Positions 11,799 to 36,397 of a stretch of 60,721 nucleotides of DNA are shown piece by piece. The DNA is taken from NCBI GenBank assembly GCA_026389265.1, contig JAPLIE010000067.1:1-60721 (forward strand). The letters run 5' to 3'. Each line of letters starts with the position of its first letter. The stretch's first letter is position 1. Source of the stretch: Cyanobacteriota bacterium. Its GTDB lineage: Bacteria > Cyanobacteriota > Cyanobacteriia > PCC-6307 > Cyanobiaceae. A program made the position numbers and the translations under genes. The notes beneath the pieces are model-generated. The model worked only from the letters and a program-made list of their open reading frames with translations. It was not told the origin of the DNA and searched no databases.

Positions 11799-11833
11799 TC
11801 CCGAACCCTGTTCCCACCCATCCCCTCGATGCC

Positions 11834-12748
11834 ATGACCTGCACGTTCTCCGCCGAGCAGATCCAGTCCCTCTCCGCCCCCCTCGATCGCGGCAAGGTCA
11901 AGCAGCGCGAACAGGGCCGCGCCAAGGTGAGCTACCTGGAGGGCTGGCAGGTGATCGCAGAAGCCAACCGGATCTTTGGGTTCGACGGCTGGCAGCGCGA
12001 GACGGTTGCTCTGCAGTGCGTCTCCCAGGCGGAACGTCGTATCGGCCGTGAGCCGAGCAAGCCCTCCGATCCACCGCAACGCGACGGCTGGGGCGTCACC
12101 TACACAGCCCGGGTGCGGGTGGTCGTCAGCGGGATCGTGCGCGAGGGCAGCGGTGCCGGCCACGGCATCGATGTCGATCTGGGCCAGGCCCATGAATCCG
12201 CCCTCAAGGAGGCCGAGACCGATGCCATGAAACGGGCGCTGATGACCTTCGGGAACCCGTTCGGTCTGGCGCTCTATGACAAGCAGCAGCGAGAGGTCAC
12301 CTCAAGCGTCACCGGGGGCCCCTCACGGGGGGAGATCACCGAGCGCCCCTCTCGGGGCGACATGCCGCCCCACTCCCCCAACGGGATCGCACCCAATGCC
12401 GCCGCCGGAAACGGCTCGCTGCGGCGCTCACCGGCTGGCAACGGTCACCGTCCCAGCAGCCACCCACCCGCAGGCCAGCACTCCGACGCTGCAGCGGCTG
12501 ATGGCCGCCAGGAGGCCCAAGTAGATCCGGCCTTGCTGCCCCTCGATGGCACCACCATCCGCCGGATTCACGCCACCATCCGCAGCCTTCCCCAGCCCCA
12601 GCTGGAGGGGTTCACCAAGGCCTTCCGCAAGCGGTTTCAGGTGCCAGCGGAGGCCACCTCCATCGCGGATCGGATTTGCCAGAAGCAACACCACGACTGG
12701 ATCGAGGCGTTCCTGGTGCAGCACCAGACGGCAGCGGTGGCCAGCTGA
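11834..12748 (+). CDS. Rad52/Rad22-like single-strand annealing protein
   Basis: The protein would anneal complementary single strands during element replication, recombination or circularisation. Residues about 10-160 carry the Rad52 core: SYLEGWQVIAEANRIFGFDG, W and R soon after, TYTARVRVVV, the Gly-rich turn, and KEAETDAMKRALMTFGNPFG. Then comes a Pro/Gly/Ser-rich low-complexity linker (about 165-235) and a C-terminal helical domain of about 65 residues. Phage Rad52 relatives have this core plus a variable tail. It closes the plus-strand early module; the LysR-like gene ends 5 bp away on the other strand. Start ATG 11834. Confidence 0.85.
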   Translation: MTCTFSAEQIQSLSAPLDRGKVKQREQGRAKVSYLEGWQVIAEANRIFGFDGWQRETVALQCVSQAERRIGREPSKPSDPPQRDGWGVTYTARVRVVVSGIVREGSGAGHGIDVDLGQAHESALKEAETDAMKRALMTFGNPFGLALYDKQQREVTSSVTGGPSRGEITERPSRGDMPPHSPNGIAPNAAAGNGSLRRSPAGNGHRPSSHPPAGQHSDAAAADGRQEAQVDPALLPLDGTTIRRIHATIRSLPQPQLEGFTKAFRKRFQVPAEATSIADRICQKQHHDWIEAFLVQHQTAAVAS

Positions 12749-15877: not shown

Positions 15878-17074
15878 TCACACCCCCCTCGGCCACAGCA
15901 CGCCGGTGCTCGGCCGGCCGCTGCCGCCACCACTCCCCCCGCCCCCTTGGAGCTGTTTGGCATAGAAGGGGTGCTGCCGCACGCCTGCAGCGCCGAGTGC
16001 TGCCGTTGACCAGTCGATCAGGAAATCCGGCCCGACGGCTGGTCCCATCGCCACCGGGCCTGGGGTGAACAGCGGGCAGAAGCTCAGCCGATCCGGGATC
16101 GTGCTCCAGGGCAAGGAGCCGACCGTGTCCCAGCCCGCCCGTGGCTGCGTACCTGGTGGGTTCAGGTACCAGAGGTCAGTGGCGCCGCTGTAGGCCGCCG
16201 CCAGCTGGTAGAAGGTGCCGGCTCCACCGGGGTTGCTCACCCGGCCCAGGCGGCGCGGGTCCGAGAGCTGGTTGCTGCCCAACCAGAAGCAGTCCGGCAG
16301 CGCGATGCGTGGCTGGAGGATCCCCGGCGCGAAAACACCGCTGGTGGTGTTCGCATACAACCCGCAACCGCGGATCAGCTGCTGATCGTTGCCAGTGGGC
16401 GGCAGGGGAATGATTGAGGCCGCCACCAGGGTGTTGTTGCTCCAGGTGTAGCTGTTCTGCGAATAAAACATGCCGGTGTAGGAGTTGGAGCGATTGAGAA
16501 CCACACTCCAACCGCTCACCGCCGGCGAGCGAAATAACAGCAGGGTGTGATTCTGCGTGTTGATGTCGGTCCCGATCGGCGCAATCGTGTAGCAGAAGAA
16601 CTCACGGCCCGGCGTCGTATCGGCCTGAATCAGCAGAAAGCCAGCCAGATCCCAGGACGGTGTGCCATCGGAGGCGTAATGCGACAGGCCGGCATTGACG
16701 CTGAAGAGGGTCGCCGAGAAGCTGCCGTAGCCGCCGTTGCTGCTGTCGTTGGTGTAGGCGCTCTCGAGGCCCAGTTGCAGGCGGGCGGAGCTGCTGCTGG
16801 AGTTGTAGCCCTGAACCTTGGAGCTGTTGGAGAAGCTGAGCAGCACCGGCGTCTGGGGATGGCCTAGCCGCCAGACGTAGCCGTAGGTGATGGAGCCTGT
16901 CGCGGCGCTGTGATCCTTGATGAGCGACAGCGGCACCAGGGCATTGGCCGGTGTGGCATTCACCTCCGCCGAGAAGGCCGTGAAGGCTTCCGCGAGCTTG
17001 AGGCCCGGATCAGTGGGCAGCTTGCTGGTCCAGTTCCAGAGCGGCCATTGCAGGGCGGAGCAGGTGAGTGGCAT
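15878..17074 (-). CDS. Fibre-like structural protein, 398 aa
   Basis: Last gene of the capsid operon. ATG 17074 lies 4 nt past the stop of the upstream gene; the longer frame to 17167 overlaps that gene and looks non-coding. The paralogue in the remnant (6369) shares GYVWRLGHP-type and SNGGYG motifs, TTPGREFF and the Gly-rich end finishing VLWPRGV. The protein is rich in Ser, Asn, Gly and aromatic residues with no membrane segment, as in tail or receptor-binding proteins. It also resembles the preceding 289-aa protein (GREFFCY against GQEFFCF), so the two may be tandem duplicates. Role inferred from context. Confidence 0.65.
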   Translation of the reverse strand: MPLTCSALQWPLWNWTSKLPTDPGLKLAEAFTAFSAEVNATPANALVPLSLIKDHSAATGSITYGYVWRLGHPQTPVLLSFSNSSKVQGYNSSSSSARLQLGLESAYTNDSSNGGYGSFSATLFSVNAGLSHYASDGTPSWDLAGFLLIQADTTPGREFFCYTIAPIGTDINTQNHTLLLFRSPAVSGWSVVLNRSNSYTGMFYSQNSYTWSNNTLVAASIIPLPPTGNDQQLIRGCGLYANTTSGVFAPGILQPRIALPDCFWLGSNQLSDPRRLGRVSNPGGAGTFYQLAAAYSGATDLWYLNPPGTQPRAGWDTVGSLPWSTIPDRLSFCPLFTPGPVAMGPAVGPDFLIDWSTAALGAAGVRQHPFYAKQLQGGGGSGGGSGRPSTGVLWPRGV

Positions 17075-17078: not shown

Positions 17079-17948
17079 TCAGGTGGTTGGGTCCTTGAGC
17101 TGCACCACCAGGCGGGCGCCGCCGAGCTGAAGCCACTCGCTGCCATCGGCAGGCTTGATGTAGCCAAAGCTCGTGAAGGTGCGGTTGTAGAGCGCCAGGT
17201 CCGCCGGCAACGCCACCGGGTCCCACCACTGCACCGGCGGCAGTGGCTGCTGGTAGAAGACCGTCGGTGTGATCGGCACCCATTGGGCCGGGCGCACCAG
17301 CATCAGTGGCGTCGCTGATGAGAAGAAGTCAGCGCGGAAGACGGTGGAGAGCAGCACCTGGGGCCGCGCCTGGTTCCAGGCCACCGTGGCGATCACACCG
17401 GCCATGTCGGTGAGCGAGAGGTGCCACTGGCCTGAGACCACGTCCTTGGCGATCAGCAGCGCCACCGCCTGACGGTTGGAGAAGGAGTGCTGAGAGAAGG
17501 CAAAGCAGAAGAACTCCTGGCCTGCCGCCAGGGAGGAGGCCACCACCGCCCCCAGCGGCAGCGGTTGAGATCCAAGGGTGATCAGGGAACTCGTGGTGCC
17601 AACCCCGCCGGTGAGGCTGCCGTGGCCACCGAGGGCCGAGCCTGGCGAGAAGCCTGCTGCCAGGCCGGCGTGGGTGGTCACAGCGCCCGTGGTCAGATTT
17701 GCCACCCACTGGCTGATCAGCTCCACCGGCTGGCCGCCGCTGAGCGCCGCCAGGCGTGCCTTGATCGTCCAGCCGCAAAAGCCCGGCGCCCCGTCGGGGC
17801 CGGTGAGCAGGCTCAGCAGTTGGGTCGGGTTCTGTCCGTTGGCAGCCGTGATCCAGGCCATCAGCAGGGCATCGACCTCGCCAAACAGGCCCGGTAGCGC
17901 AAAGCCCTGGTCCCCCCGGCGGCTGAGATCGGTGATCGTCGCCGCCAT
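17079..17948 (-). CDS. Probable structural protein, 289 aa
   Basis: ATG 17948 overlaps the stop of the upstream gene (TGATG arrangement), and the next start follows after 4 nt, so it is tightly packed in the operon. The product has GGHGS, GQEFFCFAF and a strand-rich body, similar in layout to the following protein. Its C terminus contains YIKPADGSEWLQLGGARLVV. No named family is recognised. Its place between a collagen-like fibre and another fibre-like gene suggests a virion surface or adsorption component. Confidence 0.55.
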   Translation of the reverse strand: MAATITDLSRRGDQGFALPGLFGEVDALLMAWITAANGQNPTQLLSLLTGPDGAPGFCGWTIKARLAALSGGQPVELISQWVANLTTGAVTTHAGLAAGFSPGSALGGHGSLTGGVGTTSSLITLGSQPLPLGAVVASSLAAGQEFFCFAFSQHSFSNRQAVALLIAKDVVSGQWHLSLTDMAGVIATVAWNQARPQVLLSTVFRADFFSSATPLMLVRPAQWVPITPTVFYQQPLPPVQWWDPVALPADLALYNRTFTSFGYIKPADGSEWLQLGGARLVVQLKDPTT

Positions 17949-18373
17949 CAGCCCCCCACCGAATCGTTGAGCACCAGGGCCAGCACGCCCAAGCTGGCCG
18001 TGTGGGCGCCGCTCACCTCGGTGCGCAACCGCGCCCAGAGCCGCTGCTGTAAGGGGGTCTCGCCGTTGCTGTAGCTGCTGCCGGGCGCAAGTTTGAGCAG
18101 CGGTGTTTCAGCCGAGAAGCGCAGATCGAGCAACACACCGGCCGAGAGCGGTGGGTCCTCCTCGATCGGCCTGGCCGCATCGGCTACCCGCGCCGCCGTG
18201 GAGTCGTAGAAGCTCACCCAGGCCGCCACCGAGCAGCTCACCTCCAGAAAAAGGCCGTCGACACCAAGGGCCGCAAAGCTCAGATCCACCACCGACGGAC
18301 CATTCAGCGGGCCAGTGGTCTGCTGCTCAAGGGCCCGCCGGGGCGTGTCAATCCTCGGAACCCAGCTGGGCAT
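17948..18373 (-). CDS. Small structural-type protein, 141 aa
   Basis: It overlaps its neighbours by one base on each side (TGATG), showing translational coupling. The sequence is strand-rich (VVDLSFAALGVDGLFLEV, then WVSFYDS and VLLDLRFS) with a late helix. Its pattern is similar to the 141-aa protein at 22947 (FERTRVSAEIVRLSV, then FFFARATL), so they may be distant paralogues. Function unknown; it could be a fibre base, chaperone or decoration protein. Confidence 0.55.
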   Translation of the reverse strand: MPSWVPRIDTPRRALEQQTTGPLNGPSVVDLSFAALGVDGLFLEVSCSVAAWVSFYDSTAARVADAARPIEEDPPLSAGVLLDLRFSAETPLLKLAPGSSYSNGETPLQQRLWARLRTEVSGAHTASLGVLALVLNDSVGG

Positions 18374-19635
18374 CAGGGGATCACCTGGATCTTGCGGATC
18401 GCCCGCACCGTCTGGGGAAACGTCTTGCCCAGCGGTTCCCAGTTGCCATAGAACCAGTCCTGCACCTGGTGGGTGGTGGCCGAGTCCTGGGTGGAGGTGC
18501 CCATCCCACCTGCAAAGAACTCCTGGGCACCGCCGATCGCAAATAACGGGAAGGCGGTCTGAGCTGGAGACGAGAAGGTGTAGTTGGCGCTGGCCGGCAC
18601 CGCATAGGGGTTGGCGCCGTGGGTGGTCACGTTGCCCTCACTGCCGTCCGGCTTGAAGCGCCGGTAGAGGATCTCCAGCTCGAACAGCGCCGGGATGTAC
18701 CAATCCGAGAAGGTCGCGATCGAGAGCCCCCGCGCCCATTGCGTCGCCGGGTGGGCGGCGTCGTTGGCGGCGTTGCTGTTCGCCCAGCCATCGAAGGTGC
18801 TCGATGCCCCGGTCGTTGCTGTGTTGCTGGTCTTGCAGGCCCGGCTGCTCTGGCCGCTGGCCTTGGGGGAAATGATCAGGGCGTGGGTGGCCACGCCGTT
18901 CATGCTCTGGGAGATCAGCCCGCCGTAATAGCCACCCTCGTAGGCGGCACCGATCGCCGGCAGGCTGGCTACAGGAGTGCCGCTGGCCGCGACGTTCAGC
19001 TTGTAGACGTCGCCGTTGCTTTGATCGAGGTAGAGGTCCCCCGTGACCTGGCCGGGGATCGAGGCCGGCGGTGGGCCGCTGCCCACAAACCAGCCCGTGC
19101 CACGCACGCCCTGGGCTCCAGCACCGCCGGTGGCACCAATCGGGCCTTGAATCCCCTGCGGTCCGGCAGCGCCGGTGCTGCCGGCCGGTCCGGTTGGTCC
19201 GGTGGGGCCAGCTGGGCCCACGGCGCCGGTCGGTCCAGCAGGGCCCGCGGGGCCTGAGATCGGCCCGGCGTTCACCCAGTTGCTGCCGGCTGCGTTCCAG
19301 CTGTAGAGGCTGTCGTTCTCGTCCTGGACGATGTAGGCGTCCCCCTGCTGGCGGTTGCTGGTGGGCAACGCCGAGAAGGTGGCAACACTGCCCTTGAGGT
19401 TGATGCCGGTGCCGGCGGTGCCCTGGGGTCCAGCCGGCCCCTGGGGTCCTGCCGCCCCGGTGCTGCCGGCTGGGCCGGTGGTTCCCGCTGGCCCCTGGCT
19501 GCCGGCCGGGCCGGCTGGGCCCTGCGGCCCGCTGTTGCCTTGTGGGCCGGTCGGTCCGGTGCCGCCAGCAGGACCTGTGGGTCCAGGCACACCCTGCGGT
19601 CCACGGATCGAGCCGGTGTTCGCCCAGAAGGTCAT
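18373..19635 (-). CDS. Collagen-like tail-fibre protein, 420 aa
   Basis: Residues about 12-80 and 130-175 are Gly-X-Y triplets (GPTGPAG and similar), interrupted by a folded insert (about 82-130) with the GDAYIV pattern. A GDLYLD module follows (WFVGSGPPP, then [15 protein letters not shown]), and a C-terminal domain of about 200 residues with Trp/Tyr-rich motifs like the DUF1566/Lcl type ([14 protein letters not shown]). The last part is typical of phage receptor-binding tips. ATG 19635 has 26 nt between it and a TGGCAATAG motif. Collagen repeats give trimeric rods; the tip probably contacts the host or another cell. Confidence 0.8.
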
Positions 19636-19686: not shown

Positions 19687-19932
19687 TCAGGCCAGCATCC
19701 AGGCAGTGCCACTCCAGAAGCGAATCGGCCTCAGGATCCAGGCGCTGCCGGTCCAGACCTTGGCGGTGATCGGCTGGAAGCCCCGATCGATGCCGAGGTA
19801 GGTCATCACGGCGCCGGGGCTGGCTGTCCTCACCCCGAAGAACTCCTCGGTGACGATCCGCCCCGCCGGTCCCTGGTCCCAGTTGTCCTGGCCGCCGTCG
19901 AACGGCCCGATCGGGTCCTGGCGTCTGCGCAT
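19687..19932 (-). CDS. Small tail-fibre-like protein, 81 aa
   Basis: ATG 19932 lies 3 nt past the stop of the upstream gene. The C-terminal half has a repeated Trp pattern ([21 protein letters not shown]), the short strand repeat often seen in phage fibre or fibre-accessory proteins. No signal or membrane segment. Preferred over the overlapping frame 19661-19939, whose product is Arg/Pro-rich antisense-type sequence. Confidence 0.6.
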
Positions 19933-19935: not shown

Positions 19936-20754
19936 TCAACCCACCGCCAGCTTGAGCAGGCCCCGCACCGCGCCGGTGGTGGTGGTCGAGCAGAACATCA
20001 GCAGCGCCAGGCAGGCGTCATTAGGCACCACCGGCAGACCCAGGCCAGCCCAATCACGGATCTCGCTCTTGTTGGCCACCATCGTCGTGGTGCCGGTCAA
20101 AAAGCGAGTGGCCGTCACCCCGAAAGCCCCGGCTGTGCCGGTGGTGGCGCTCAGCAGGACACTGTTGACCTGCTTGATCCCCGTCTTGCCCGCAGCAGGC
20201 AGGATCGGGTACAGACCCGAGGCGCGGCTGGTGGCAACCAGGGCGATCACCACATCCCCTGTGGTGTCATCGGCATAGGTCACGTTCACCGTGGCGTTCA
20301 CGCCCGTGACGCCGGTGTCCGTGTACCACTCGAGCCACCAGCAGAGCTCAGAGAGATCCACCGGCCCGATCCGATCGGCGGAAACGCCGGTGAGGGTGAG
20401 GGGCAGGTTGGTGGTCTGCACCGTCGGCGAGGCCACGGTGCCCGAGAGGCCGCCCTGGTGGCAGAGCCGGTCGTGGACGCTGAGGTTGGTGGCGCTGTTG
20501 GCCGTCACCAGATCCAGCCAGGCCAGGTAGTTCGCCGCAGGCGGTGTCTGGTTCGTGAGCGGCAACGCTCCGGTCGTGGCCCGGCTGCAGACCGCCGCCG
20601 TGGTCGGAACGGCGCCCTGGCCCGGCTGACCCGTCGCCCGCCAGAGCGAGTAGAAGCGCCCGGCCACGGCGTTGGTGAGGCTCGCCTTGTCGATCAGCGC
20701 ATTGCGCGAGAGCGTCAGGGCTGCAATCAGCTGGTCGCGGCTCGTGATCGCCAT
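19936..20754 (-). CDS. Probable structural protein, 272 aa
   Basis: The start is ATG 20754, sharing its A with the stop of the collagen-like gene upstream (TGATG). The longer frame to 20898 overlaps that gene and is not used. The product begins with a helix ([20 protein letters not shown]) and continues as a Thr/Ala-rich strand protein with no recognised family. The N-terminal helix followed by a beta body fits a virion protein with an attachment helix. Position in the operon is the main evidence for role. Confidence 0.6.
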   Translation of the reverse strand: MAITSRDQLIAALTLSRNALIDKASLTNAVAGRFYSLWRATGQPGQGAVPTTAAVCSRATTGALPLTNQTPPAANYLAWLDLVTANSATNLSVHDRLCHQGGLSGTVASPTVQTTNLPLTLTGVSADRIGPVDLSELCWWLEWYTDTGVTGVNATVNVTYADDTTGDVVIALVATSRASGLYPILPAAGKTGIKQVNSVLLSATTGTAGAFGVTATRFLTGTTTMVANKSEIRDWAGLGLPVVPNDACLALLMFCSTTTTGAVRGLLKLAVG

Positions 20755-21134
20755 CAGTTCGTGTCCACCCAGAGGTCGTTGACCTGGGGGCTGGCCGGTG
20801 CCGTTGGTCCCACGGTCAGCCTTGAGGCGTTGAGCTTGAGGTTGAGCGCTTCCTGCAGGTCGGCTTGCGTGCTCAAGCTGCCGGTGATGCCACCCCACAC
20901 GCTCGGCCCGGCTGGGCCAGCTGGCCCCTGGCTACCGGTGGCTCCAACTGGACCTGTCGCCCCCGTCGGACCCGTTGCTCCGGTGGGCCCAGCGGGTCCG
21001 GTGCTGCCGGCGGTGCCGGGCACGCCTTGGGGGCCCTGGACGCCGGCTGGGCCCTGGCTACCCGCCGGGCCAGCAGCTCCCGCTGGTCCTTCCGGCCCCC
21101 GCAGCGACAGCCCGAGGGCGCCCCAAGACGTCAT
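20754..21134 (-). CDS. Short collagen-like fibre protein, 126 aa
   Basis: Residues about 12-78 are Gly-X-Y triplets; the last 48 residues contain a helix ([16 protein letters not shown]) and a short NDLWVDTN ending that resembles a cut-down GDLYLD module. ATG 21134 follows a 57-bp gap holding a TGGCAATAG motif. It is probably a trimeric rod paired with the longer collagen-like fibre. Repeat number in such genes varies easily by slippage. Confidence 0.75.
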
Positions 21135-21190: not shown

Positions 21191-21967
21191 TCAGACGATC
21201 AGCTCGAACACCTGGCCGTTCGTCCGGTTGAGGTACAGATCGCCCGGTGCCGGCGGCGGGTTGAGCCCCTCGCTCGGTGGTGGCCCATCGCCCGCATACC
21301 AGCGGGTGCCGCGGCTGGCCGCACCAGAGCCGTTCATCACCACCAGCGACGGCTTGCCATCCACCGGCGATGGCAGCAGCGCCAAGCCGCCCTGGGGGTG
21401 CAGGCGCAGCCGCCACACCTCGGCGCGGCTGCCGTTGTAGGCCAGCCCATCGAGGCCGTCGCTCGGCACCAGCGGCTCCACCCCGGCCAGGCTGCTCGCT
21501 CCACCAGTTGGGGAGCTCGGGATCATGTTCGGCGGCAGGGGGCAGCCCAACAGCGCCACCGGCAACGTGGCGATGTTCATCCCCATCGTCACCGTCACGC
21601 TCAGGTCCAGCCGCTGCCCGTAGACGTGCCGCACCTTGGGCACATCGGGTCGGTAGGGCGTCCAGGGCACGGTTTCGCTTGTGCCATCACCCCAGTCCAC
21701 CTGAAAATCCTGGGCCGGCAGCCCCAGCGGGTTCACCGCCAGCTCGATCGGCGCGGAACCGAGCGGATCATTCCAGCGGCTCGGCGCCGGCATCCAGAAC
21801 AGCTCCAGCGGCAGGGCCGGCACCGGCCCCAGCCGGAAGCTCAGCTCCAGCCAGCGCGGTGCTTCATGGACCAGCACCCATTCCTCGCCGCCCGGGCAGC
21901 CCACCGGCGGGATGATCCGCACCCGCCCGTTGGTGGGATCAGAGCCAGTGGGCAGCGGGTAAGGCAT
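21191..21967 (-). CDS. Structural-type protein with PKD-like and GDLYL modules, 258 aa
   Basis: ATG 21967. Residues about 80-130 have a PKD-like pattern (FQVDWGDGTSETVPW, then VRHVYG). The C terminus carries WYAGDGPPP...GDLYLNRTNGQVFEL, the same module found inside the collagen-like protein at 18373. The N-terminal third is a strand-rich unknown. The sharing of one terminal module by two proteins of this operon suggests exchange of fibre parts. Likely a fibre or surface adhesin of the particle. Confidence 0.65.
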   Translation of the reverse strand: MPYPLPTGSDPTNGRVRIIPPVGCPGGEEWVLVHEAPRWLELSFRLGPVPALPLELFWMPAPSRWNDPLGSAPIELAVNPLGLPAQDFQVDWGDGTSETVPWTPYRPDVPKVRHVYGQRLDLSVTVTMGMNIATLPVALLGCPLPPNMIPSSPTGGASSLAGVEPLVPSDGLDGLAYNGSRAEVWRLRLHPQGGLALLPSPVDGKPSLVVMNGSGAASRGTRWYAGDGPPPSEGLNPPPAPGDLYLNRTNGQVFELIV

Positions 21968-21982: not shown

Positions 21983-22942
21983 TCAGCGCAGCAGATCCAG
22001 CGGCAGGGCCGGCTCCTGGTCATCTGCCAGAGGCTCATCAAGCTCAGCGATCGGGGCCGCGCTCACCGGACCCTTGGCTTCCAGCAGCTCGGCCTCGGCC
22101 ACCAGCTCCGCCTTGGTCATTCCCGGATCCAGCGCCACGCCGTAGTGACGCTCCACCTCGGCGATGATCTGCGCCTTGGTCATTGCGGCGTAATCGGGCA
22201 GGTTCTCAGCAGTCGCCGCCAGGGTCGACTCAGGACTGGACGGCGCAGGCCTCTCGTGGAGCATGATCGGGAACCAAGGTCCCGTCCCCACCGAGTTGGC
22301 CACGGCGATCAAGCAGTCCTCAGCGGCCAGGACCTTGCCGGTGGTCAGGGAGAACACCAGCTCCGTCAGGCTGGACACCTTGACCGCAGAAGCCGTGGCG
22401 AGCGAGGGAGGCTGAACCACCACCGTGCTCCCGGGCTCAAAGTTCGAGCCAACCAGTTGCACCTCCTGACCCGGTGCCTCCACTCCGATCGTGTAGGGAC
22501 CACCTTTCACCGCCGTGATCACACCCAGCCCCTCGCTGGGATCAATCGGTGGTTCACCGTCCTCCCCATCGGCACCCGGAAGGCTGGGAGCGTGCGCCTG
22601 CCAGCCCAGGGCCTGCCAACCGTCCATGTGACAGGGGAAGCAGTAGCGGGTCTCACTGCCACGGGTGATCCGGATCATCCCCTCGGGGGGGACATCCAGC
22701 CTCGGCATCGCATCGGTGAGTGGCATCGACATCGTCGGATCAGAGGGGCGGACGCGATCAGAGGGTTCATCGGGCAACGGATCAAGCGGCGGCGCCGTCG
22801 GCACCGTCGGATCCGAGCCCTGCGTCAGTGGTTGAGGCGGCGCCCAGGGGGAGCCGGGCACCGTGGGGCGCACGACGGGATTGGCGAGCGCCGTCGCTTC
22901 GATCACGGAGCCATTGAGGTCGCCGGGGACGGGGTCGTTCAT
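21983..22942 (-). CDS. Probable structural protein with IPT-like and helical tail domains, 319 aa
   Basis: The start is ATG 22942, 4 nt after the upstream stop; the frame to 22975 overlaps that gene. A Pro-rich N-terminal third is followed by an IPT/Ig-like segment (about 155-240: VQLVGSNFEPGSTVVVQ, then LVFSLTTG and LIAVANSVG). The C-terminal stretch has two short repeats of the AMTKAQIIAEVERHYG / GMTKAELVAEAE type, resembling small SAP/HeH-like helical motifs seen in capsid-associated phage proteins. Near the capsid gene this could be a head-fibre or decoration protein. Confidence 0.55.
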   Translation of the reverse strand: MNDPVPGDLNGSVIEATALANPVVRPTVPGSPWAPPQPLTQGSDPTVPTAPPLDPLPDEPSDRVRPSDPTMSMPLTDAMPRLDVPPEGMIRITRGSETRYCFPCHMDGWQALGWQAHAPSLPGADGEDGEPPIDPSEGLGVITAVKGGPYTIGVEAPGQEVQLVGSNFEPGSTVVVQPPSLATASAVKVSSLTELVFSLTTGKVLAAEDCLIAVANSVGTGPWFPIMLHERPAPSSPESTLAATAENLPDYAAMTKAQIIAEVERHYGVALDPGMTKAELVAEAELLEAKGPVSAAPIAELDEPLADDQEPALPLDLLR

Positions 22943-22946
22943 CGGC

Positions 22947-23372
22947 TCAACCGTGGGTGAGGCTGACGTGGGCACCCGCCGGCGTCGATGGCGTCAGGGT
23001 CGCCCGCGCAAAGAAGAAGCAGGGATCGACCACGTTGGCCAGATCACCGGCGGCGGGCACCAAGGCATCGCCGCTGATCGTCGCCTCGATCTGGCCGCCA
23101 GCGGCGGGAACCGCCACGGTGGCGGCCGTCACCCAGGTGCCGGTGGTGCCGTCCTTGAGCAGCGGCGCCACCTGCAACACCGCCGTCACCGCAGCAGCGG
23201 CACCGGGATGGGAGAACAGCAGGGTGAAGTGCTCGACGGTGTCGAGCGGAACGCTCAGGCGCACGATCTCAGCGCTGACGCGGGTGCGCTCAAACGGGTC
23301 GGTGGCGCTGTAGTTGATCCAGCCCACCAGCGTGGTGACGGCATCGATGAGCTTGTTGCCAGAAGCGGTCAT
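22947..23372 (-). CDS. Small protein next to capsid, 141 aa
   Basis: ATG 23372, 48 bp after the capsid gene. The product begins with a helix (KLIDAVTTLVGWINY) and continues as strands (SAEIVRLSVPLDTVEHFTLLF, then CFFFARATL). It is in the position where phages often place a decoration, head-completion or adaptor protein. No family is recognised. Similar size and strand pattern to the 141-aa protein at 17948. Confidence 0.55.
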   Translation of the reverse strand: MTASGNKLIDAVTTLVGWINYSATDPFERTRVSAEIVRLSVPLDTVEHFTLLFSHPGAAAAVTAVLQVAPLLKDGTTGTWVTAATVAVPAAGGQIEATISGDALVPAAGDLANVVDPCFFFARATLTPSTPAGAHVSLTHG

Positions 23373-23420: not shown

Positions 23421-24320
23421 TCAGGTCAGAGCGGGGCCGATGTTGTAAAGCCGCCCGATCGCCTTCTGATCGCAGACGGCAAAGCCCACGTACCAATCGA
23501 CGCGGGTGCGGAACACAGGGGCGTCCTGCACTTCCCCGAAGTCCCGCACCGAGATGCCGTAGCGCCCCTCGAACGGTCCCTGCAGGCCGGTCATCTGCTC
23601 ATCGCCAAAGGCGCAGCAGTAGATCGAGGTGGTGCCGCCCGCTTCCCCGAAGCCGAGCACCTCGTTGCCGTTGGCGTCCTCCTCCAGGCAGAGGATCTCG
23701 GTGTCCTCGAACCAGTGGCGGCCGTCGATCACCTGATAGAGGTCACCCCCAGCGGCGCGGCAGGCGGAGCTGATCTGACGCCGACCCGCCTTGCTGGTGA
23801 GCAGCACCTTCTCGCTGCCATAGGCATTGACGGAGTCCACCAGGGCCTCCAGCCGGGTCAGCTTGACGCTGCCGGAGGTGTTGTCGACGGTCTGGGGACC
23901 ACCGGGGGTGAGCCGCTTGCTGAGGCCATTGAAGGCACGCGGGTCGAAGGCGGCATCGCCGTTGATCACGGCCGCCTCGAGGGTGAGCCGCATCGAGCGC
24001 ACCTTCTGCTCGGTCTGGCTGGCCCTGGCCTCCGGGCCGTTGAGGTCCACGATCGAGCGGTCCACATCGAGATCACCACCAAACAGGTGGACGAACTCGG
24101 TGTCGTTCTCGACGGCGCCGTAATCACGCCGATAGCCCTCGTTGACGGCACGGAAGCCGACGCGGGGCATTTTCTTCTCGACAGCGAACTTGAGAGCACC
24201 GCCAAGCAGGTTGCGGAAGGGCAGGCGGCTGATCAGTTGACCCTCGGTGAAGGTCTTGATCACGGCCAGGCGCTCAACCCGCGTCTCGTGTTTGGCAGCC
24301 TCGATCAGGGAGAGGCCCAT
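23421..24320 (-). CDS. Phage-type major capsid protein (HK97 fold likely)
   Basis: 299 aa from ATG 24320; the frame to 24368 adds 16 unlikely residues. Signature parts are an N-terminal helix (LSLIEAAKHETR), VIKTFTEGQLISRLPFRNL, the stretch LEAAVINGDAAFDPRAFNGL, a later YCCAFGDEQMTGLQ, and the ending FRTRVDWYVGFAVCDQKAIGRLYNI. This ending and the insertion after NGD are typical of major capsid proteins of siphovirus type that lack a long delta domain. It would build the shell. No portal, protease or terminase lies nearby, so packaging must rely on another phage or be lost. First gene of the minus-strand operon, behind a TGGCAATAG motif. Confidence 0.8.
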   Translation of the reverse strand: MGLSLIEAAKHETRVERLAVIKTFTEGQLISRLPFRNLLGGALKFAVEKKMPRVGFRAVNEGYRRDYGAVENDTEFVHLFGGDLDVDRSIVDLNGPEARASQTEQKVRSMRLTLEAAVINGDAAFDPRAFNGLSKRLTPGGPQTVDNTSGSVKLTRLEALVDSVNAYGSEKVLLTSKAGRRQISSACRAAGGDLYQVIDGRHWFEDTEILCLEEDANGNEVLGFGEAGGTTSIYCCAFGDEQMTGLQGPFEGRYGISVRDFGEVQDAPVFRTRVDWYVGFAVCDQKAIGRLYNIGPALT

Positions 24321-25960: not shown

Positions 25961-26043
25961 CGCGGCAGTGCGTCAGGCACGTACGTCAAAGCGTACCGCT
26001 GGCGGTCCTGGCAATGGGTTGGATCCGAGACCCCCTTGCCGCC

Positions 26044-26769
26044 ATGGCCACGCCGATGACCCCGGAGCGGTTCCAGGACCGCTGGGAAGCGTTCAAGGGT
26101 GAACCCCAGCAGGTGTCCGGCATCTGGGGGCTTTACCGCTCGATCGCCGAACTGGAAGGCAGTGGCGACATCCTCGATGAGCATGCGAGCTGGGCGCTCA
26201 AGTTCAGCGAGAAGCCAGCAGCGCTGCCGCCGCCGGCGAGGGGCAATCCGCTGGCGTTGCCGTTCTTCGATCAGACCAACGACGGCCCCGAGGGCTGGCG
26301 CCATTGCCAGAGCTCCAGCATTGCCATGAACCTCGCCTTCCTGCAGGTTCCCGGCATCCGCGACGACCTCGACTACCTGCGGGTCGTGGAGCGCTACGGC
26401 GACACCACCAGCCAGGCGGCACACGCCAAGGCCCTCGCCGAGCTGAACGCACCGGGGCGTTTCAGTACCAACTGCACGGTGGAGCGGGCCAAGGCCGAGA
26501 TCGACAAGGGCTACGGCCTGGCGATCGGCATCCTGCACAAGGGTCCGGTGTCAGCACCCAGCGGCGGCGGGCATTACATCGCGGTGCGGGGCTACGACAG
26601 CAACGGCTGGCTGGTGCATGACCCCTACGGTGATCTCGATCTGATCCGCGGCACCTGGGCCAAAGAAGGCGGCGGGGCTGGGAAGGGCCTGCACTACTCG
26701 TTCAAGAACACCAACCCCCGCTGGCTGCCGGAGGGTGCCGCCTCGGGCTGGGCCTGGTTGTTCTCGTGA
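26044..26769 (+). CDS. C39-family cysteine peptidase
   Basis: 241 aa from ATG 26044 (ATG 26014 is also in frame). Papain-like C39 pattern: Cys88 in WRHCQSSSIAMNLAFL, His177 in GGHYIAVRGYD, Asp193 in VHDPYG. Such domains cleave peptides, and in phages they serve as cell-wall endopeptidases or processing enzymes. No signal peptide, so if it acts on the wall it needs a pore. The next gene, 3 nt downstream, encodes a small membrane protein that could be that pore. Alternatively it processes a capsid or fibre protein. Confidence 0.7.
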   Translation: MATPMTPERFQDRWEAFKGEPQQVSGIWGLYRSIAELEGSGDILDEHASWALKFSEKPAALPPPARGNPLALPFFDQTNDGPEGWRHCQSSSIAMNLAFLQVPGIRDDLDYLRVVERYGDTTSQAAHAKALAELNAPGRFSTNCTVERAKAEIDKGYGLAIGILHKGPVSAPSGGGHYIAVRGYDSNGWLVHDPYGDLDLIRGTWAKEGGGAGKGLHYSFKNTNPRWLPEGAASGWAWLFS

Positions 26770-26772: not shown

Positions 26773-27087
26773 GTGCCAGGCAACGACCCGAGCGGTGCCG
26801 GCAGTGGCTCGGGTCAGCGACCAGCCTCTGCGAGGAAGCGCGGTTCGAAACCGCCCTTCGATCGGGAGCGGTTCATCTTCAAGTTGCTGGCGGTCGTGAT
26901 CATCACGCAGCTCAGCTTGTACACCGTGGCGACCGGAGTCTGCGGAAACGTGGCCTACTCCCAGCGCCAGAAGGTGGTCGAGGTTTGCCCCCGCGTGCTG
27001 GATCAGGTGACCTCAGCCTTTGATGCCACGTTGAAACTGCTCATCGCCCTACTGGGCGGGGCGGCACTGACCCAGAACGGACGCTGA
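26773..27087 (+). CDS. Small membrane protein, holin-like
   Basis: 104 aa from GTG 26773. A hydrophilic N-terminal 30 residues, one strong membrane helix (about 36-58, FKLLAVVIITQLSLYTVATG), a loop with two Cys, and a second helix at the C terminus (TLKLLIALLGGAALTQ). Immediately after the C39 peptidase, this layout fits a holin or a membrane partner of the peptidase. The family is not recognised, so the role rests on topology and position. Confidence 0.5.
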   Translation: MPGNDPSGAGSGSGQRPASARKRGSKPPFDRERFIFKLLAVVIITQLSLYTVATGVCGNVAYSQRQKVVEVCPRVLDQVTSAFDATLKLLIALLGGAALTQNGR

Positions 27088-27417: not shown

Positions 27418-27578
27418 CAGAGGGGCGGCACGAAGGGCGGGCAATGCCCCTGCTCCCTGTTGCCACGACTGACCGGCATCGGTCCGATCGGGAGGCGGCT
27501 GGCCTGCTGCTTGGCCTTGCTCAGCTTGGCCTTCTCCTCCGTCGAGGCCTGGGGTCGCGCGTCCTACGCGATCAGGCC

Positions 27579-28133
27579 ATGGCCCGCACCCCATCCCAGG
27601 CCGATGCCCTCTTCCAGCAGTTCCTGCCCCTTGCTGAATCCATTGCCCGCAGCCTGGCGTCCAGCAGCCGTGTGATCGAGCTGGAGGATGCCCGGCAAGT
27701 GGCCCAGATGCAGCTGTGGCTCTCCTGTCACCAGGTCGATGAGCCCACATCAGCCCCGGCCTACTTGCGGCGCTGCATCCAGGGCGCCCTGCTCCACCAC
27801 CTCCGCGATCACGGCCGCCTGGTCCGCGTCTCGAGGCGGGAGCACGAGAAAGGCGGTCACCCCTGGAGCCACCAGAGCCTGCATGCCCCGATGCCCAGCG
27901 GTGATCTCTGGATCGATCAGCTGGAGGCACCCGAGCAGCCGGGCCAGCCCGGTGGCGAGGGCATCGAGGCCCTGCTCGATCGGCTCCCGGCGGCCCAGGC
28001 GGCCATCATCCGCCTCTCGGTGCTGGAGGGCCAGAGTCTCCGCCAGATCGGTCAGAAGCTGGGCATCAGTGCCATGTCGGTGCATCGGCGCCGGCAGGCA
28101 GGCCTGGCCGCCCTCAGGGCCGAGCTGGCCTGA
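27579..28133 (+). CDS. Sigma-70-family RNA polymerase sigma factor
   Basis: 184 aa from ATG 27579; the frame from 27444 adds Arg/Leu-rich residues that look non-coding. Region 2 is at about residues 8-75 (FQQFLPLAESIARSLA, then EDARQVAQMQLWLSC and YLRRCIQGALLHHLRDH). Region 4 is at about 130-182 (LDRLPAAQAAIIRLSVLEG, QSLRQIGQKLGISAMSVHRR). Size and lack of regions 1 and 3 resemble compact phage or ECF-like factors. It could direct polymerase to the element's late genes; the TGGCAATAG motifs in the capsid operon are possible targets. Confidence 0.8.
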   Translation: MARTPSQADALFQQFLPLAESIARSLASSSRVIELEDARQVAQMQLWLSCHQVDEPTSAPAYLRRCIQGALLHHLRDHGRLVRVSRREHEKGGHPWSHQSLHAPMPSGDLWIDQLEAPEQPGQPGGEGIEALLDRLPAAQAAIIRLSVLEGQSLRQIGQKLGISAMSVHRRRQAGLAALRAELA

Positions 28134-29321: not shown

Positions 29322-30269
29322 ATGGCCGCGTCCCAGTCCCGCTCACGCAAAACCTATGAAGGCCCTACGGCTGAGGAGAAGATCGTCGCCTCGTTGATCG
29401 AGCTGATGGAGGCCGGATCAGCCCCCTGGCGGCGGCCCTGGGATGGCACCGGTGGCGGCCACCACGTCAATCTGCTCTCAGGCCATCGCTACCGCGGTGC
29501 CAATCCGATCCTGCTCACCCTGGGCATGCACATCAGGGGTTCAGCCCTGCCGTTCTGGTGCGGCTTTGCCGAGGCCAAGAAGCTCCGCATCTTCCCCCGC
29601 AAGGGCAGCAAGGCGGTTCACATCCTGCGGCCCCAGCTGCACAGCCGCGAGGAGTCCGGCGATGGCGGTGAAGTCACCCTGCGCAGCTGGGCCAGCTACC
29701 GGCCGGTGGCGGTCTTCAATGCCGCCGATCTCGAGGGTGAGGCACTTCCCGCTCTGATCGAAGCCCGCAAGGCGGCCGAAAGCGTGGAGGCCAAGCCGGA
29801 GCCCGAGCGCTTGGAGGCGGCGGAAGCCGTGCTGGGTGCCTGGCCGGTGCCGGTCAGCTTCGGAGGGGATCGGGCCTGCTATCTCCCAGCCATCGATCGG
29901 ATCCAGCTGCCCGATCGTGCCAGCTTCCACTCACCCGCCGCGTTCTGCGCCACCTGGGCCCATGAGCAGATCCACTCCACCGGCCATGAATTCAGGCTCA
30001 AGCGTGATCTGGGCGGTGCCTTCGGGAAGCCGCGCTATGCCCGCGAAGAGCTGGTCGCTGAATTAGGCGCGGTGCTGCTGGGTGATCGGCTGGAGATCGG
30101 CAGCGAGATCGAAAGCCATGCTGCCTATCTCGGCCACTGGATCGAGCTGCTCAAGGAATCGCCCAAGGTGCTGTTCCAGGTGCTCAGCGAAGCCCGGCAG
30201 GCGGCGGATTTGATCTGTCCGGAGAGGCCGGGGCAGCTGGAGCCCCAGGGTGATGGGCTCGCCACCTGA
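29322..30269 (+). CDS. ArdC-type antirestriction protein
   Basis: 315 aa from ATG 29322. The N-terminal half is the ArdC single-strand DNA-binding domain (IVASLIELMEAGSAPWRRPWD, YRGANPILLTLGM, WCGFAEAKKLRIFPRKGSKA). The C-terminal half is a zincin-like metallopeptidase with His214-Glu-Gln-Ile-His218 in WAHEQIHSTGH and a following EELVAELGAVLL helix that supplies the third ligand. ArdC proteins protect incoming mobile DNA from restriction. It sits 420 bp before a BREX operon, so the element carries both a shield and a defence. Led by hairpin D. Confidence 0.85.
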   Translation: MAASQSRSRKTYEGPTAEEKIVASLIELMEAGSAPWRRPWDGTGGGHHVNLLSGHRYRGANPILLTLGMHIRGSALPFWCGFAEAKKLRIFPRKGSKAVHILRPQLHSREESGDGGEVTLRSWASYRPVAVFNAADLEGEALPALIEARKAAESVEAKPEPERLEAAEAVLGAWPVPVSFGGDRACYLPAIDRIQLPDRASFHSPAAFCATWAHEQIHSTGHEFRLKRDLGGAFGKPRYAREELVAELGAVLLGDRLEIGSEIESHAAYLGHWIELLKESPKVLFQVLSEARQAADLICPERPGQLEPQGDGLAT

Positions 30270-30691: not shown

Positions 30692-31330
30692 GTGAGCTTC
30701 CTAGAGCTGGACAACCCGGTTGATCAAGAAACCGGGCGTTCCACAGTCGCTTCCGCGACCCCAAACTCGGCCCTGGATCAGGCACTGACGGCCCAGATCG
30801 TGGTCGCCTGGGCTGGAGAGGGTGGAGAGGAGCCCCGGCTGGCCTGGTGGCGCACCGATCTGATTTCCGAGTTCGGCGGGGAGGACCTGTTTCGTCGACT
30901 CCTGCCTCAGACCTGGGAATGGGCACTGCTGCAGGCCGTGCGCGAGGCAGCGCGCCGAAAGGATGAGGAGCTGCGGCGGCAGTCCAGTGATGCCGACCGC
31001 CTGGTCTCTCTCTATCGCTTCGGTTTCGAGTTGGACGAGCGGATCGAGGAGCAGCTTCAGGCACATAAGCGCAGCGGCCGCAAACCCCATGAGGCCCTGC
31101 CTGATCTGTTCCATGGCATGGGCGGGGAGCAGGGGGGGCATTGGAGCCAGGAGGCTTTCCTCCAGTGGGTTGAAGGCCATGGCACTGCAGAGGTGACCAC
31201 CACCCCATCCGGACGGCTGATCAAGGGACCACTGCCCGTGAGCCTTGATCAAAAGGTCCACCGGCTTGTGGCGGCGTTGGCTCCCTTTGGGGAGGGCTAT
31301 CCCTTGCCGCACTTCCGGGGGGAATCATGA
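30692..31330 (+). CDS. brxE: BREX type 6 protein BrxE
   Basis: 212 aa from GTG 30692. Matches the small BrxE class that opens BREX type 6 operons: IVVAWAGEGG, WWRTDLISEFGGEDLFRRLL, PQTWEWALLQAVREAARRKD, then DRLVSLYRFGFELDERIEEQL. Its biochemical role is not known. It overlaps brxA by 4 nt, placing it first in the operon. No clear promoter is visible in the 150 bp upstream. Confidence 0.8.
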   Translation: MSFLELDNPVDQETGRSTVASATPNSALDQALTAQIVVAWAGEGGEEPRLAWWRTDLISEFGGEDLFRRLLPQTWEWALLQAVREAARRKDEELRRQSSDADRLVSLYRFGFELDERIEEQLQAHKRSGRKPHEALPDLFHGMGGEQGGHWSQEAFLQWVEGHGTAEVTTTPSGRLIKGPLPVSLDQKVHRLVAALAPFGEGYPLPHFRGES

Positions 31331-32109
31331 GCCGTCCCCACGAGGAGACGCGTCTCCATACCCGGCTGCTCAAATGCACGCTGGAGCTTGAGAACTCCAG
31401 GATCTACTGGGGGCTGGCGGGGAGTGGAGTTGCCCTGACAGCGGAGCAGGCCTTCGAGGAGGGCTGGTTCGGCCATCGCAGCCTGAGCCGCCTACGGGAG
31501 TTGCTGGGTGATCTGCGTGTCCGTTTTGATGCCTTCCCCAGCGCCCTGCAGGTTCTGCATGGCTGGAAGGAAATGGCGCCCGACACCCAGCGACTGATCT
31601 GCCACTGGCACCTACAGCTGGCGGACCCCCTCTACCGCCACTTCACCGGTTCCTACCGGTTTGATCAGCTCAACCACGGCCACCGGACACTCTCCAAGCA
31701 GCAGGTGGTGCGCTGGCTCTGGGAACAGACGGGCGAGCGCTGGGCGATAAGCACCCGCCTGCAGATCGCCAGCAAACTCTTGTCTTCCGCCTTCGCCGCT
31801 GGCTTGATCGGCTCACGCAGGGACCCGAGGCCAATCACCTTCCCACGGGTGCCTGAGGAAGCCCTGAGCTACCTGCTGTATCTCCTGCGTGAGGTGGAAA
31901 TCAGCGGCACCCTGCTCGACAACCCTTATCTGGTCTCAGTGGGATTGGTGGGAGACTTCCTCGACGACCGGTTGCGGGGATTACCCGGCCTCGCCTTCGG
32001 CCGTCAGGGTGAACTGGTGGATATGGGTTGGCGCCATAGCGATCTCACCACCTGGGCTGACAAGAACGGTGTGTCTCTATCGCCGGTTGAGGAGGCAGTG
32101 GCCTCATGA
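31327..32109 (+). CDS. brxA: BREX protein BrxA (DUF1819)
   Basis: 260 aa. DUF1819 pattern: LLKCTLELENSRIYW, AFEEGWFGHRSLSRL, WHLQLADPLYRHFTGSY, then a second winged-helix-like part with VVRWLWEQTGERWA and KLLSSAFAAGLIG. In studied BREX systems BrxA is a small DNA-binding helical protein needed for phage exclusion. The start ATG overlaps brxE by 4 nt, and the stop overlaps brxB by 4 nt (ATGA). Confidence 0.9.
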   Translation: MSRPHEETRLHTRLLKCTLELENSRIYWGLAGSGVALTAEQAFEEGWFGHRSLSRLRELLGDLRVRFDAFPSALQVLHGWKEMAPDTQRLICHWHLQLADPLYRHFTGSYRFDQLNHGHRTLSKQQVVRWLWEQTGERWAISTRLQIASKLLSSAFAAGLIGSRRDPRPITFPRVPEEALSYLLYLLREVEISGTLLDNPYLVSVGLVGDFLDDRLRGLPGLAFGRQGELVDMGWRHSDLTTWADKNGVSLSPVEEAVAS

Positions 32110-32747
32110 CCAGCACGCTGCCCCTGTTCAGCAAGGTCAACACGGCGATCGATGCTCTGCGTCACGACCTGATCGACCACAAGGATGGCCCGCGCATCAG
32201 CACGATGCGCAATTACCGCTTTGCCATCGTTCAGTACGACCCGAGCGATGAGTTCGAAATGCGAGCCAAGGCTCAGAGCTTGGTGGCCGAATTGACGGCA
32301 AACGGATGGGTGGTGCTCACGATCGATCTCCAGAAACTGTTGATCGATCGGATCAAGGCCCAGGGAGCGGAGTGGGTGGACCGCGTAATCCAGATGGAAG
32401 AGCGCATGGGCCGCATCCAGCTCGACCGTGGCCTGAACTACCTCACCGACAAGCTGCTGCCGCTCGTGGAAGGACCAAAAGGCCTTGCCGCTGACTGCCG
32501 CCGCCTGATCAAGGACTTCACCGAAAAGAATCCCGACCAGGCGGACAGGACCCTGGTGCTGATCGGCAGGGCTGGGGGGCTCTATCCCTTCTTCCGCTCC
32601 TCCGCTTTGCTGAGACACCTCGATGGCCAGACTGGCAATGTCCCTGTGGTTCTGCTGTACCCAGGCTCCAGACAGGGCAGTACATCGCTGTCGTTCATGG
32701 GCGTTCTGAACTCCGACAGCGATTACCGCCCGAGGATCTACCCATGA
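32106..32747 (+). CDS. brxB: BREX protein BrxB (DUF1788)
   Basis: 213 aa. DUF1788 pattern: MRNYRFAIVQYDPSDEFEMR, VAELTANGWVVLTIDL, and the C-terminal LIGRAGGLYPFFRSSALL, VPVVLLYPGSRQG, LSFMGVLNSDSDYRPRIYP. A predicted ATPase-like fold often lacking a full P-loop; the role in the BREX complex is unresolved. Coupled by 4-nt overlaps on both sides. Confidence 0.9.
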   Translation: MTSTLPLFSKVNTAIDALRHDLIDHKDGPRISTMRNYRFAIVQYDPSDEFEMRAKAQSLVAELTANGWVVLTIDLQKLLIDRIKAQGAEWVDRVIQMEERMGRIQLDRGLNYLTDKLLPLVEGPKGLAADCRRLIKDFTEKNPDQADRTLVLIGRAGGLYPFFRSSALLRHLDGQTGNVPVVLLYPGSRQGSTSLSFMGVLNSDSDYRPRIYP

Positions 32748-36382: not shown

Positions 36383-36397
36383 GGAGGATCCAATGCC

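What the first reader, a model, noticed from the sequence alone, without database searches (positions are those of the whole stretch)
23421..24320. Capsid gene in an integrase-led element with no terminase or portal
A clear major capsid protein heads an 11-gene operon of fibre-like proteins, yet portal, protease, terminase, tube and tape-measure genes are all missing in the 43 kb to the right of the integrase. This fits a satellite that remakes or replaces a helper's shell, as known for capsid-encoding tycheposons and other phage satellites, here with a defence island as cargo.
Basis: partly seen in the sequence, partly recalled or inferred. Interest (0 to 1): 0.75.

Follow-up and report, generated by a model that had tools for sequence, protein, structure and literature searches.

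The report
Half of a tail-less capsid island
The capsid gene is real, but it is most likely one half of a large mobile island of freshwater picocyanobacteria that carries its own DNA-packaging genes further along, apparently makes phage-like heads without any recognisable tail, and ferries a BREX defence system as cargo.

Summary
The capsid gene is real: minus strand, 23421-24320, 299 aa; Pfam GP7 4e-15, PHROG 212 1e-53, 40% identical to cyanophage P-SS2's head protein. No portal or terminase was found in the window. That gap is most likely caused by the contig end. The same genome holds TerL, portal, LysM protein, scaffold and a putative TerS on contig C147, which has no capsid gene. In sister genomes both modules sit on one contig and strand, TerL 17-77 kb upstream, and C147 and window blocks follow each other colinearly. 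So a packaging-less satellite is the less likely reading. Complete relatives integrate at tRNA genes with 44-47 bp att repeats (48.8, 83.7, 113.4 kb); one genome carries two identical head-to-tail 56,093-bp copies. They carry integrase, replication, packaging, scaffold, capsid, lysis and fibre genes; no tail-tube, baseplate or tape-measure gene was recognised, in an incomplete search. Capsid dN/dS is 0.013-0.051 among close loci, which speaks against relics. Of 400 sampled family genomes 61 have a capsid-gene match (51 full-length). Parts were published before as relic or 8.2-kb 'replication-defective' prophages. How the heads get a tail function is unsolved.

The parts
23421..24320 (-). major capsid protein (GP7 / PHROG 212 family)
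   Evidence: purifying selection
22947..23372 (-). c1, conserved 141-aa beta-sandwich protein just after the capsid gene (possible head decoration, inferred)
   Evidence: 15 of 17 regions; AlphaFold pLDDT 72; only weak CBM22-like and fibre-like fold matches
21983..22975 (-). c2, structural-operon protein (start codon uncertain)
   Evidence: same cluster in 17 of 21 regions
21191..21967 (-). fibre-operon protein FIB15
20754..21134 (-). collagen-repeat protein
   Evidence: Pfam Collagen 7.5e-14
19936..20754 (-). fibre-operon protein, no significant family hit
19687..19932 (-). small fibre-operon protein
18373..19635 (-). collagen-repeat fibre
   Evidence: Pfam Collagen 3.8e-13; PHROG 819 tail protein 4.5e-37
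17948..18373 (-). fibre-operon protein FIB31
   Evidence: PHROG 9627 (unknown function) 1.2e-13 for 17948-18292
17079..17948 (-). fibre-operon protein FIB36
15878..17074 (-). fibre-operon protein FIB27
26014..26769 (+). endolysin (C39-like)
   Evidence: PHROG 10051 endolysin 2.9e-46; Pfam Peptidase_C39_2 4.2e-8
26896..27087 (+). small protein beside the endolysin; called holin-like by position only
   Evidence: cluster in 11 of 17 regions; function inferred; a relative had no PHROG hit
27444..28133 (+). sigma-70 family factor
   Evidence: Pfam Sigma70_r4_2 9.5e-10 and r2 1e-8; PHROG 351
29322..30269 (+). anti-restriction protein (labelled ArdC here, from recall)
   Evidence: PHROG 7245 2.3e-67
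30692..49238 (+). BREX cargo: BrxE, BrxA, BrxB, BrxC, PglX, AbiLi/AbiLii-like pair, PglZ, BrxD, BrxHI
   Evidence: PADLOC models
55928..60677 (.). metal-type cargo (P-type-ATPase-like gene and neighbours), shared with the C147 end and sister elements
   Evidence: gene clusters; DNA colinearity; function read from the sequence only, no profile run
10379..12748 (+). block at the element end: GTP-binding-type protein, Mu Gam-like, DNA-repair/recombinase (labelled Rad52 from recall)
   Evidence: PHROG 289 5.5e-12, 253 8.8e-23, 26464 1.8e-15
7981..9291 (+). tyrosine integrase
   Evidence: Pfam Phage_integrase 1.2e-6
7871..7913 (+). 43-bp copy of the tRNA-Pro(TGG) att sequence; probable element boundary
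   Evidence: same arrangement in G146:C12 (24-base core)
100..142 (-). second, inverted 43-bp att copy, probably of a neighbouring element

Best explanation
The window shows the capsid-fibre-lysis half, the BREX cargo and the integrase end of a large prophage-derived integrative island. Its packaging half (nuclease, putative TerS, TerL, sigma factor, portal, c13, LysM protein, scaffold) is on contig C147 of the same genome. Working model: the integrase excises the element at a tRNA-Pro site (att repeats shown; excision inferred). Element-borne sigma factors switch on late genes (inferred). Scaffold and capsid protein build heads on the portal, and TerS/TerL fill them (inferred from families). 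The endolysin opens the cell and the collagen/fibre proteins serve attachment (inferred). No canonical tail was recognised, so the head must be finished by a minimal tail of its own (c13 + LysM + fibres, about 0.45) or a helper phage's tail (about 0.35). Defence and metal genes sit in a hotspot between the two modules.
For: Own genome: one full capsid gene, one full TerL and one portal, both on C147 with scaffold and without a capsid gene. C147 and window blocks are colinear on single contigs of other genomes: G178:C4 and G123:C1 in element order; G178:C9, where a C147-end block and a window-start block are 350 bp apart; G008 and G063, same order, inverted, about 4.5 kb apart. Same-contig, same-strand modules in 97-99% capsid relatives. 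Att-bounded elements of 48.8, 83.7 and 113.4 kb; an identical tandem pair with period 56,093 bp, 0 mismatches in 55,412 compared bases. TerL matches in 50 of 61 genomes with a capsid match, TerL alone in 8, of 400 examined. Capsid dN/dS 0.013-0.051 against 7 close loci; no stops in the 18 of 25 loci compared. TerL, portal and scaffold families. No tail cluster recognised; no hit of two tape-measure families in 15 genomes.
Against: The C147-window join is inferred; no overlap links the contig ends, and the last 4-6 kb of C147 and first 2.6-3.9 kb of the window side are not covered by the bridging blocks. In G008 and G063 the bridging blocks lie downstream of the capsid gene, so cargo is also shuffled. 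Capsid modules without nearby packaging genes exist: SynAce01 copy 1 has none in 115 kb upstream, though a broken portal-LysM-scaffold block lies at about 264-268 kb. G088 (99% complete) has a 99% capsid protein but only a TerL fragment and no portal. Element lengths vary 2.3-fold, awkward for one fixed capsid. The collagen proteins hit 'tail fiber' PHROGs and the LysM protein weakly hits 'baseplate hub' (7.9e-5), so some tail function may be present. The tail search was not exhaustive: 28 of 53 genes of the G140 element and 10 of 59 of the G239 unit.
Confidence: 0.75

Rival explanations
1. The window element is a capsid-only satellite without packaging genes; C147 belongs to a separate co-resident element that packages it in trans.
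For: No TerL or portal in 36 kb upstream of the capsid gene in the window. SynAce01 copy 1, with similar metal and BREX cargo, has no TerL in 115 kb upstream, beside a complete copy. G178 has three capsid genes but two TerL and two portals.
Against: G000 has exactly one full capsid gene and one full TerL. Two 99% relatives and one 97% relative carry both modules on one contig and strand. Five contigs of other genomes carry C147 and window blocks in colinear order.
Confidence: 0.12
2. A tailed temperate phage whose tail genes are merely too diverged to recognise, or a short-tailed phage using c13 and the LysM protein (overlaps with the best explanation).
For: It has lysis, sigma-factor, replication and fibre genes that a tail-stealing satellite would not obviously need (inference). 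c13 and the LysM protein follow the portal in the 15 of 17 regions that include it, with one LysM gene missed by the gene caller.
Against: No cluster present in 14 or more of the 17 regions exceeds about 570 aa, so there is no tape-measure candidate. Of P-SS2's proteins only scaffold, capsid, a lysozyme cluster and two further clusters are shared, none annotated as tail. No tail PHROG beyond fibres, the LysM-repeat hit and a scaffold coiled-coil hit at E 0.039.
Confidence: 0.35
3. Decayed prophages: inert scattered pieces, as earlier papers concluded for RS9917 and SynAce01.
For: Real remnants exist: N-terminal capsid scrap with fibre and integrase pieces on C59 and a scaffold gene with a TerL scrap on C144; truncated and stop-bearing copies in other genomes.
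Against: Very low dN/dS with intact reading frames; multi-copy genomes (up to 7 matches); an identical 56,093-bp tandem pair; the same gene order across genera.
Confidence: 0.1
4. A gene-transfer-agent-like use: heads package host or element DNA piecemeal for transduction.
For: Att-bounded length varies 48.8-113.4 kb within one capsid family, odd for whole-genome packaging.
Against: Integrase and att repeats are retained and elements are patchy (matches in 61 of 400 genomes), unlike stably inherited GTAs (the GTA comparison is recalled).
Confidence: 0.1

Closest known systems
Cyanophage P-SS2 (NC_013021)
   Same: Capsid protein 40.5% identical; related scaffold and lysozyme cluster
   Different: P-SS2 has annotated tail and tape-measure genes; none were recognised in the island
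Synechococcus RS9917 'relic prophage' islands (PMC2784084, passages seen)
   Same: Islands with P-SS2-like terminase, integrase, sigma factor, lysozyme and structural genes, beside tRNA genes
   Different: Reported as incomplete relics; here att-bounded copies, selection and wide spread are shown. RS9917 itself was not examined here
phiSynAce1 of Synechococcus CS-601/SynAce01 (PMC6337551, passages seen)
   Same: Its published coordinates (65,524-73,790) cover the TerL-portal block of an element found here
   Different: Reported as an 8.2-kb replication-defective prophage; the att-bounded element is 83.7 kb and includes a capsid module about 50 kb away
Capsid-forming PICIs (definition from passages of PMC10690885 and PMC11389934)
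   Same: Own capsid, portal and terminase, no recognised tail genes, integrase
   Different: 49-113 kb, large cargo hotspot, own lysis, fibre and primase/helicase genes; scaffold instead of a detected protease; no helper known
Streptomyces satellites MulchRoom/MiniFlayer (PMC10690885, passages seen)
   Same: Terminase, portal, capsid and scaffold; MulchRoom thought to use its helper's tail
   Different: Phage-like satellites with known helpers; different host phylum
Tycheposons (recalled; the Cell paper is not held)
   Same: Picocyanobacterial tRNA-integrating cargo elements
   Different: Not tested for the tycheposon integrase clade; complete head and packaging set here

Membership tests
Capsid-forming PICI | Encodes its own major capsid protein, portal, TerS and TerL | tested here: met
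   In complete relatives; in this genome split over C70 and C147. TerS is named by position; its one PHROG hit is weak (0.0026) and of unknown function
Capsid-forming PICI | Head maturation protease and HNH endonuclease | tested here: inconclusive
   No such hit among 28 of 53 genes of the G140 element and 10 of 59 of the G239 unit, apart from a weak 'prohead protease inhibitor' hit (0.0015) of a protein after the capsid gene; a scaffold is present instead
Capsid-forming PICI | No tail genes of its own | tested here: inconclusive
   No tube, tape-measure or baseplate gene recognised, but fibre and LysM proteins are present
Capsid-forming PICI | Induced by, and tailed by, a helper phage | not testable with these tools
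   Needs phage infection or induction experiments
Temperate tailed phage (Caudoviricetes prophage) | Integrase and att sites | tested here: met
Temperate tailed phage (Caudoviricetes prophage) | Head and packaging module | tested here: met
Temperate tailed phage (Caudoviricetes prophage) | Tail module | tested here: inconclusive
   None recognised in the genes scanned; no PF10145 or PF20155 match in 15 genomes; a diverged or minimal tail cannot be excluded
Tycheposon | Tyrosine recombinase at a tRNA gene in picocyanobacteria (recalled definition) | tested here: met
Tycheposon | Integrase of the tycheposon clade | not tested
   Reference sequences and paper not held
Gene transfer agent | Stably inherited, without integrase or att (recalled definition) | tested here: not met
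   Integrase and att repeats retained; patchy distribution

The most novel reading that the evidence does not exclude
A family of autonomous, tail-less (or radically minimal-tailed) DNA-carrying heads, encoded by 49-113 kb chromosomal islands of picocyanobacteria, that spread defence and metal genes between genera by fibre-studded particles without any conventional phage tail.
Probability: 0.25. Interest if true: 0.88.

Novelty: new variant of a known kind. Interest (0 to 1): 0.6.

Why it matters
If right, pieces published as relic or defective prophages belong to one widespread, selected mobile family (capsid match in 61 of 400 sampled family genomes, 14 of 59 genera) that makes its own phage heads and moves BREX and metal cargo among freshwater picocyanobacteria. 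The split layout, with TerL and capsid gene up to 77 kb apart around a cargo hotspot, would explain why a prophage finder reported only a fragment in SynAce01. The missing tail gives a clear testable question: borrowed, minimal or absent.

Tried and rejected
A packaging-less derivative was my first reading (note, after one search showed no packaging block within 20 kb of the 80-99% capsid copies then fetched); it was dropped when TerL and portal appeared in the own genome and far upstream on relatives' contigs. An encapsulin or domesticated shell was considered and dropped because portal, terminase and scaffold accompany the capsid gene (inference). c13 as a head-tail connector could not be judged: AlphaFold pLDDT 42.5. 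The c1 model (pLDDT 72) gave no clear PDB match (best E 2.3e-3) and only weak fibre-like viral matches (best E 2.2e-4). The capsid scan of IMG/VR found two contigs; all 26 genes called on L155 match the G004 element at 99.6-100%, so they add no proof of particles. IMG/VR contigs with TerL at 89% identity or more (12 of 69 loci) show the same packaging order in the flanks held, apart from two short ones with little flank. No overlap joins C147 and C70. G190's capsid gene was missed by my simple gene caller, so 20 of 21 regions entered the capsid cluster. For the selection test I used 18 of the 25 loci; L018-L020 (full-length) and L030-L033 (partial) were left out. The labels INT, HEL, PRIM, HOLIN, ARDC and RAD52 in the region maps are mine. 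Links by cluster, such as the P-SS2 lysozyme, rest on BLAST and not on profiles.

Full report
WHAT WAS CLAIMED AND WHAT IS THERE. The capsid gene is genuine. It lies on the minus strand, 23421-24320 (299 aa), and matches Pfam GP7 (4.2e-15) and PHROG 212 over nearly its whole length (9.7e-54). tblastn hits 194 phage records, the best being Cyanophage P-SS2 (40.5% identity). Ten minus-strand ORFs follow; two carry collagen repeats. Integrase, endolysin and sigma factor, anti-restriction protein and a BREX operon with an AbiLi/AbiLii-like pair complete the picture. No terminase or portal was found in the window; 31 of its proteins were scanned. But the window is one whole contig, C70, of a 214-contig draft, so absence in the window says little.

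THE PACKAGING GENES ARE IN THE SAME GENOME. Relatives of the capsid gene at 59-72% identity often have an upstream block in which I identified TerL (PHROG 38, 5.2e-74), portal (PHROG 145, 1.6e-18) and scaffold (PHROG 206, 3.7e-13), with a LysM protein (Pfam 1.6e-17), the small protein c13, and a TerS named by position. With TerL and portal as queries the own genome gave one full TerL (71% identity), a 53-residue TerL scrap on C144, and one portal (58%). TerL and portal are on C147, 29,921 bp, which reads, in order, nuclease, c24, c108, TerS, TerL, sigma factor, portal, c13, LysM, scaffold, then cargo, with no capsid gene. The only full capsid gene is in the window; a 45-residue remnant is on C59.

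SAME ELEMENT OR TWO? In sister genomes both modules lie on one contig and one strand with packaging upstream. Examples are G178:C4 (capsid 99%, TerL 37 kb away), G204:C67 (99%, 41 kb), G004:C7 (33 kb), G258:C93 (17 kb), G123:C1 (77 kb) and G041:C1 (97%, portal-c13-LysM-scaffold 21 kb away). At DNA level three large blocks of C147 (reverse-complement positions 1-1894, 2133-4737, 8248-13612) match G178:C4 7262-19850 at 87-91%, and a window block (7621-9457, reverse-complement) follows at 25545-27358 (90.6%). G123:C1 has C147 17373-24031 followed by window 7842-8771. G178:C9 carries the C147 block 20592-23876 and, 350 bp on, the window block 3881-4784, which has no C147 match there. G008 and G063 carry both end blocks in matching order and orientation about 4.5 kb apart, though downstream of their capsid gene. 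I therefore read C147 and C70 as two parts of one element, with BREX and metal genes in the cargo hotspot between the modules. This join is inferred: the contig ends share no overlap and the outermost few kb are not bridged.

BOUNDARIES AND MOBILITY. Elements bounded by repeats of tRNA 3' ends: 44 bp of tRNA-Pro in SynAce01 (83.7 kb), 47 bp of tRNA-Gly in G140 (48.8 kb) and in G123 (113.4 kb); in 7 of the 10 tRNA-bearing regions tested no second copy was found in the stretch held. The window has 43 bp of the same tRNA-Pro sequence at 7871-7913, just outside the integrase, and an inverted copy at 100-142. G146:C12 ends in the same way, judged by the 24-base core. G239 carries two head-to-tail copies with period 56,093 bp and 0 mismatches over the 55,412 bases I could compare. 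This points to recent activity, although an assembly effect of a circular form cannot be excluded.

SPREAD AND SELECTION. A capsid match is found in 19 of 42 genus genomes, 61 of 400 family genomes (14 of 59 genera; 51 with a full-length match by my count of its rows, the other 10 being fragments, broken copies or, once, a distant 27% match) and 47 of 299 order genomes, every one listed in the same family (samples overlap). TerL matches, fragments included, occur in 58 of the 400. Both occur in 50 genomes, capsid only in 11, TerL only in 8. In some searches at most 5, 3 and 7 candidates per genome were scored, so counts are lower bounds. Portal was found in 16 of 18 genomes with an 80-99% capsid protein (misses G088 and G279; some matches are fragments). 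Against 7 close loci the capsid gene has dS 0.20-0.27 and dN/dS 0.013-0.051; against 11 more distant ones dN/dS 0.12-0.24; there are no stops in these 18 (of 25) loci. The fibre genes tested mostly change faster.

THE MISSING TAIL. In 17 regions (this genome's C70 and C147 counted apart) the clusters present in 14 or more are sigma factor, capsid, scaffold, c1, c7, LysM, c13, portal, TerL, TerS, c4, c24, nuclease and c30; none exceeds about 570 aa. All 14 were scanned in at least one copy. PHROG scans of 28 of 53 genes of the G140 element and 10 of 59 genes of the G239 unit show replication, regulation, packaging and defence genes. They show no tail tube, tape measure or baseplate, apart from a weak LysM-driven 'baseplate hub' hit (7.9e-5) and a coiled-coil tape-measure hit of the scaffold at E 0.039. 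In the window the collagen proteins hit tail-fibre PHROGs. PF10145 and PF20155 tape-measure families have no match in 15 element-bearing genomes, while 7 and 5 of 14 controls ring. Structure prediction did not settle c1 or c13.

HOW IT PROBABLY WORKS. Shown: gene content, order, att repeats, selection, tandem copy. Inferred: excision by the integrase, late expression by the element's sigma factors, head assembly by scaffold, portal and capsid protein, DNA filling by TerS/TerL, release by endolysin, and attachment by the fibre operon. Unknown: the tail function. Own lysis and fibre genes speak for a self-sufficient particle with a minimal tail (about 0.45); the complete head with no recognised tail speaks for a borrowed tail (about 0.35). 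Lengths from 48.8 to 113.4 kb with one capsid family are hard to square with strict whole-element packaging.

AGAINST MY READING. SynAce01 copy 1 has capsid, BREX and metal cargo but no TerL in the 115 kb upstream; a broken portal-LysM-scaffold block about 160 kb away on the other strand (about 264-268 kb) may be its lost half. G088 has a 99% capsid protein, only a TerL fragment and no portal. G178 has three capsid genes but two TerL and two portals. So capsid-only copies may occur, and C147 could belong to another copy (0.12).

PRIOR WORK. Passages of PMC2784084 describe RS9917 islands with P-SS2-like terminase, integrase, sigma factor, lysozyme and structural genes as relic prophages. Passages of PMC6337551 report phiSynAce1, 8.2 kb, as replication-defective; its coordinates fall on the TerL-portal block of the 83.7-kb element. 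The tycheposon paper is not held. Passages on capsid-forming PICIs and on Mulch/Flayer satellites came from PMC11389934 and PMC10690885. PMC10187409 passages describe another integrase-defined picocyanobacterial element at tRNA-Phe/Cys, with no capsid genes mentioned in what I saw. Nine paper searches listed no description of this family as a tail-less capsid island.

VERDICT. What replaces it is at least as interesting: a widespread, selected island family with complete head and packaging genes and no recognised tail.

Noticed in passing
G000 contig C59 (L007, minus strand about 8.8-12.6 kb): Remnant of a second element: integrase-like gene, fibre-gene pieces and the first 45 codons of a capsid gene
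   Followed up: partly
G000 contig C144 (L113): A scaffold gene with element neighbours and a 53-residue TerL scrap, without portal or capsid gene
   Followed up: partly
window 100-142 and 7871-7913: Two inverted 43-bp tRNA-Pro att copies bracket 7.7 kb that includes another copy of the FIB27 fibre gene (6369-7484)
   Followed up: partly
window 25085-25960 (minus): Three small genes between endolysin and capsid gene that look like toxin-antitoxin genes by sequence (no profile run); variable among elements
   Followed up: no
window 13592-15862: 756-aa protein with a P-loop (PHROG 505 polynucleotide kinase, 4e-7) shared by several elements beside the fibre operon
   Followed up: partly
window 767-2890 (minus): Large ORF with a P-loop of helicase type whose end looks frame-broken; possibly old defence cargo
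   Followed up: no
SynAce01 chromosome 1-220 and 255-275 kb (L136-L142, L156-L159, L262): One complete 83.7-kb element next to a rearranged one; published phiSynAce1 covers only part of the packaging block
   Followed up: yes
G239 contig C18 85-197 kb (L256-L261, L273): Identical tandem duplication of a 56,093-bp element at tRNA-Gly
   Followed up: yes
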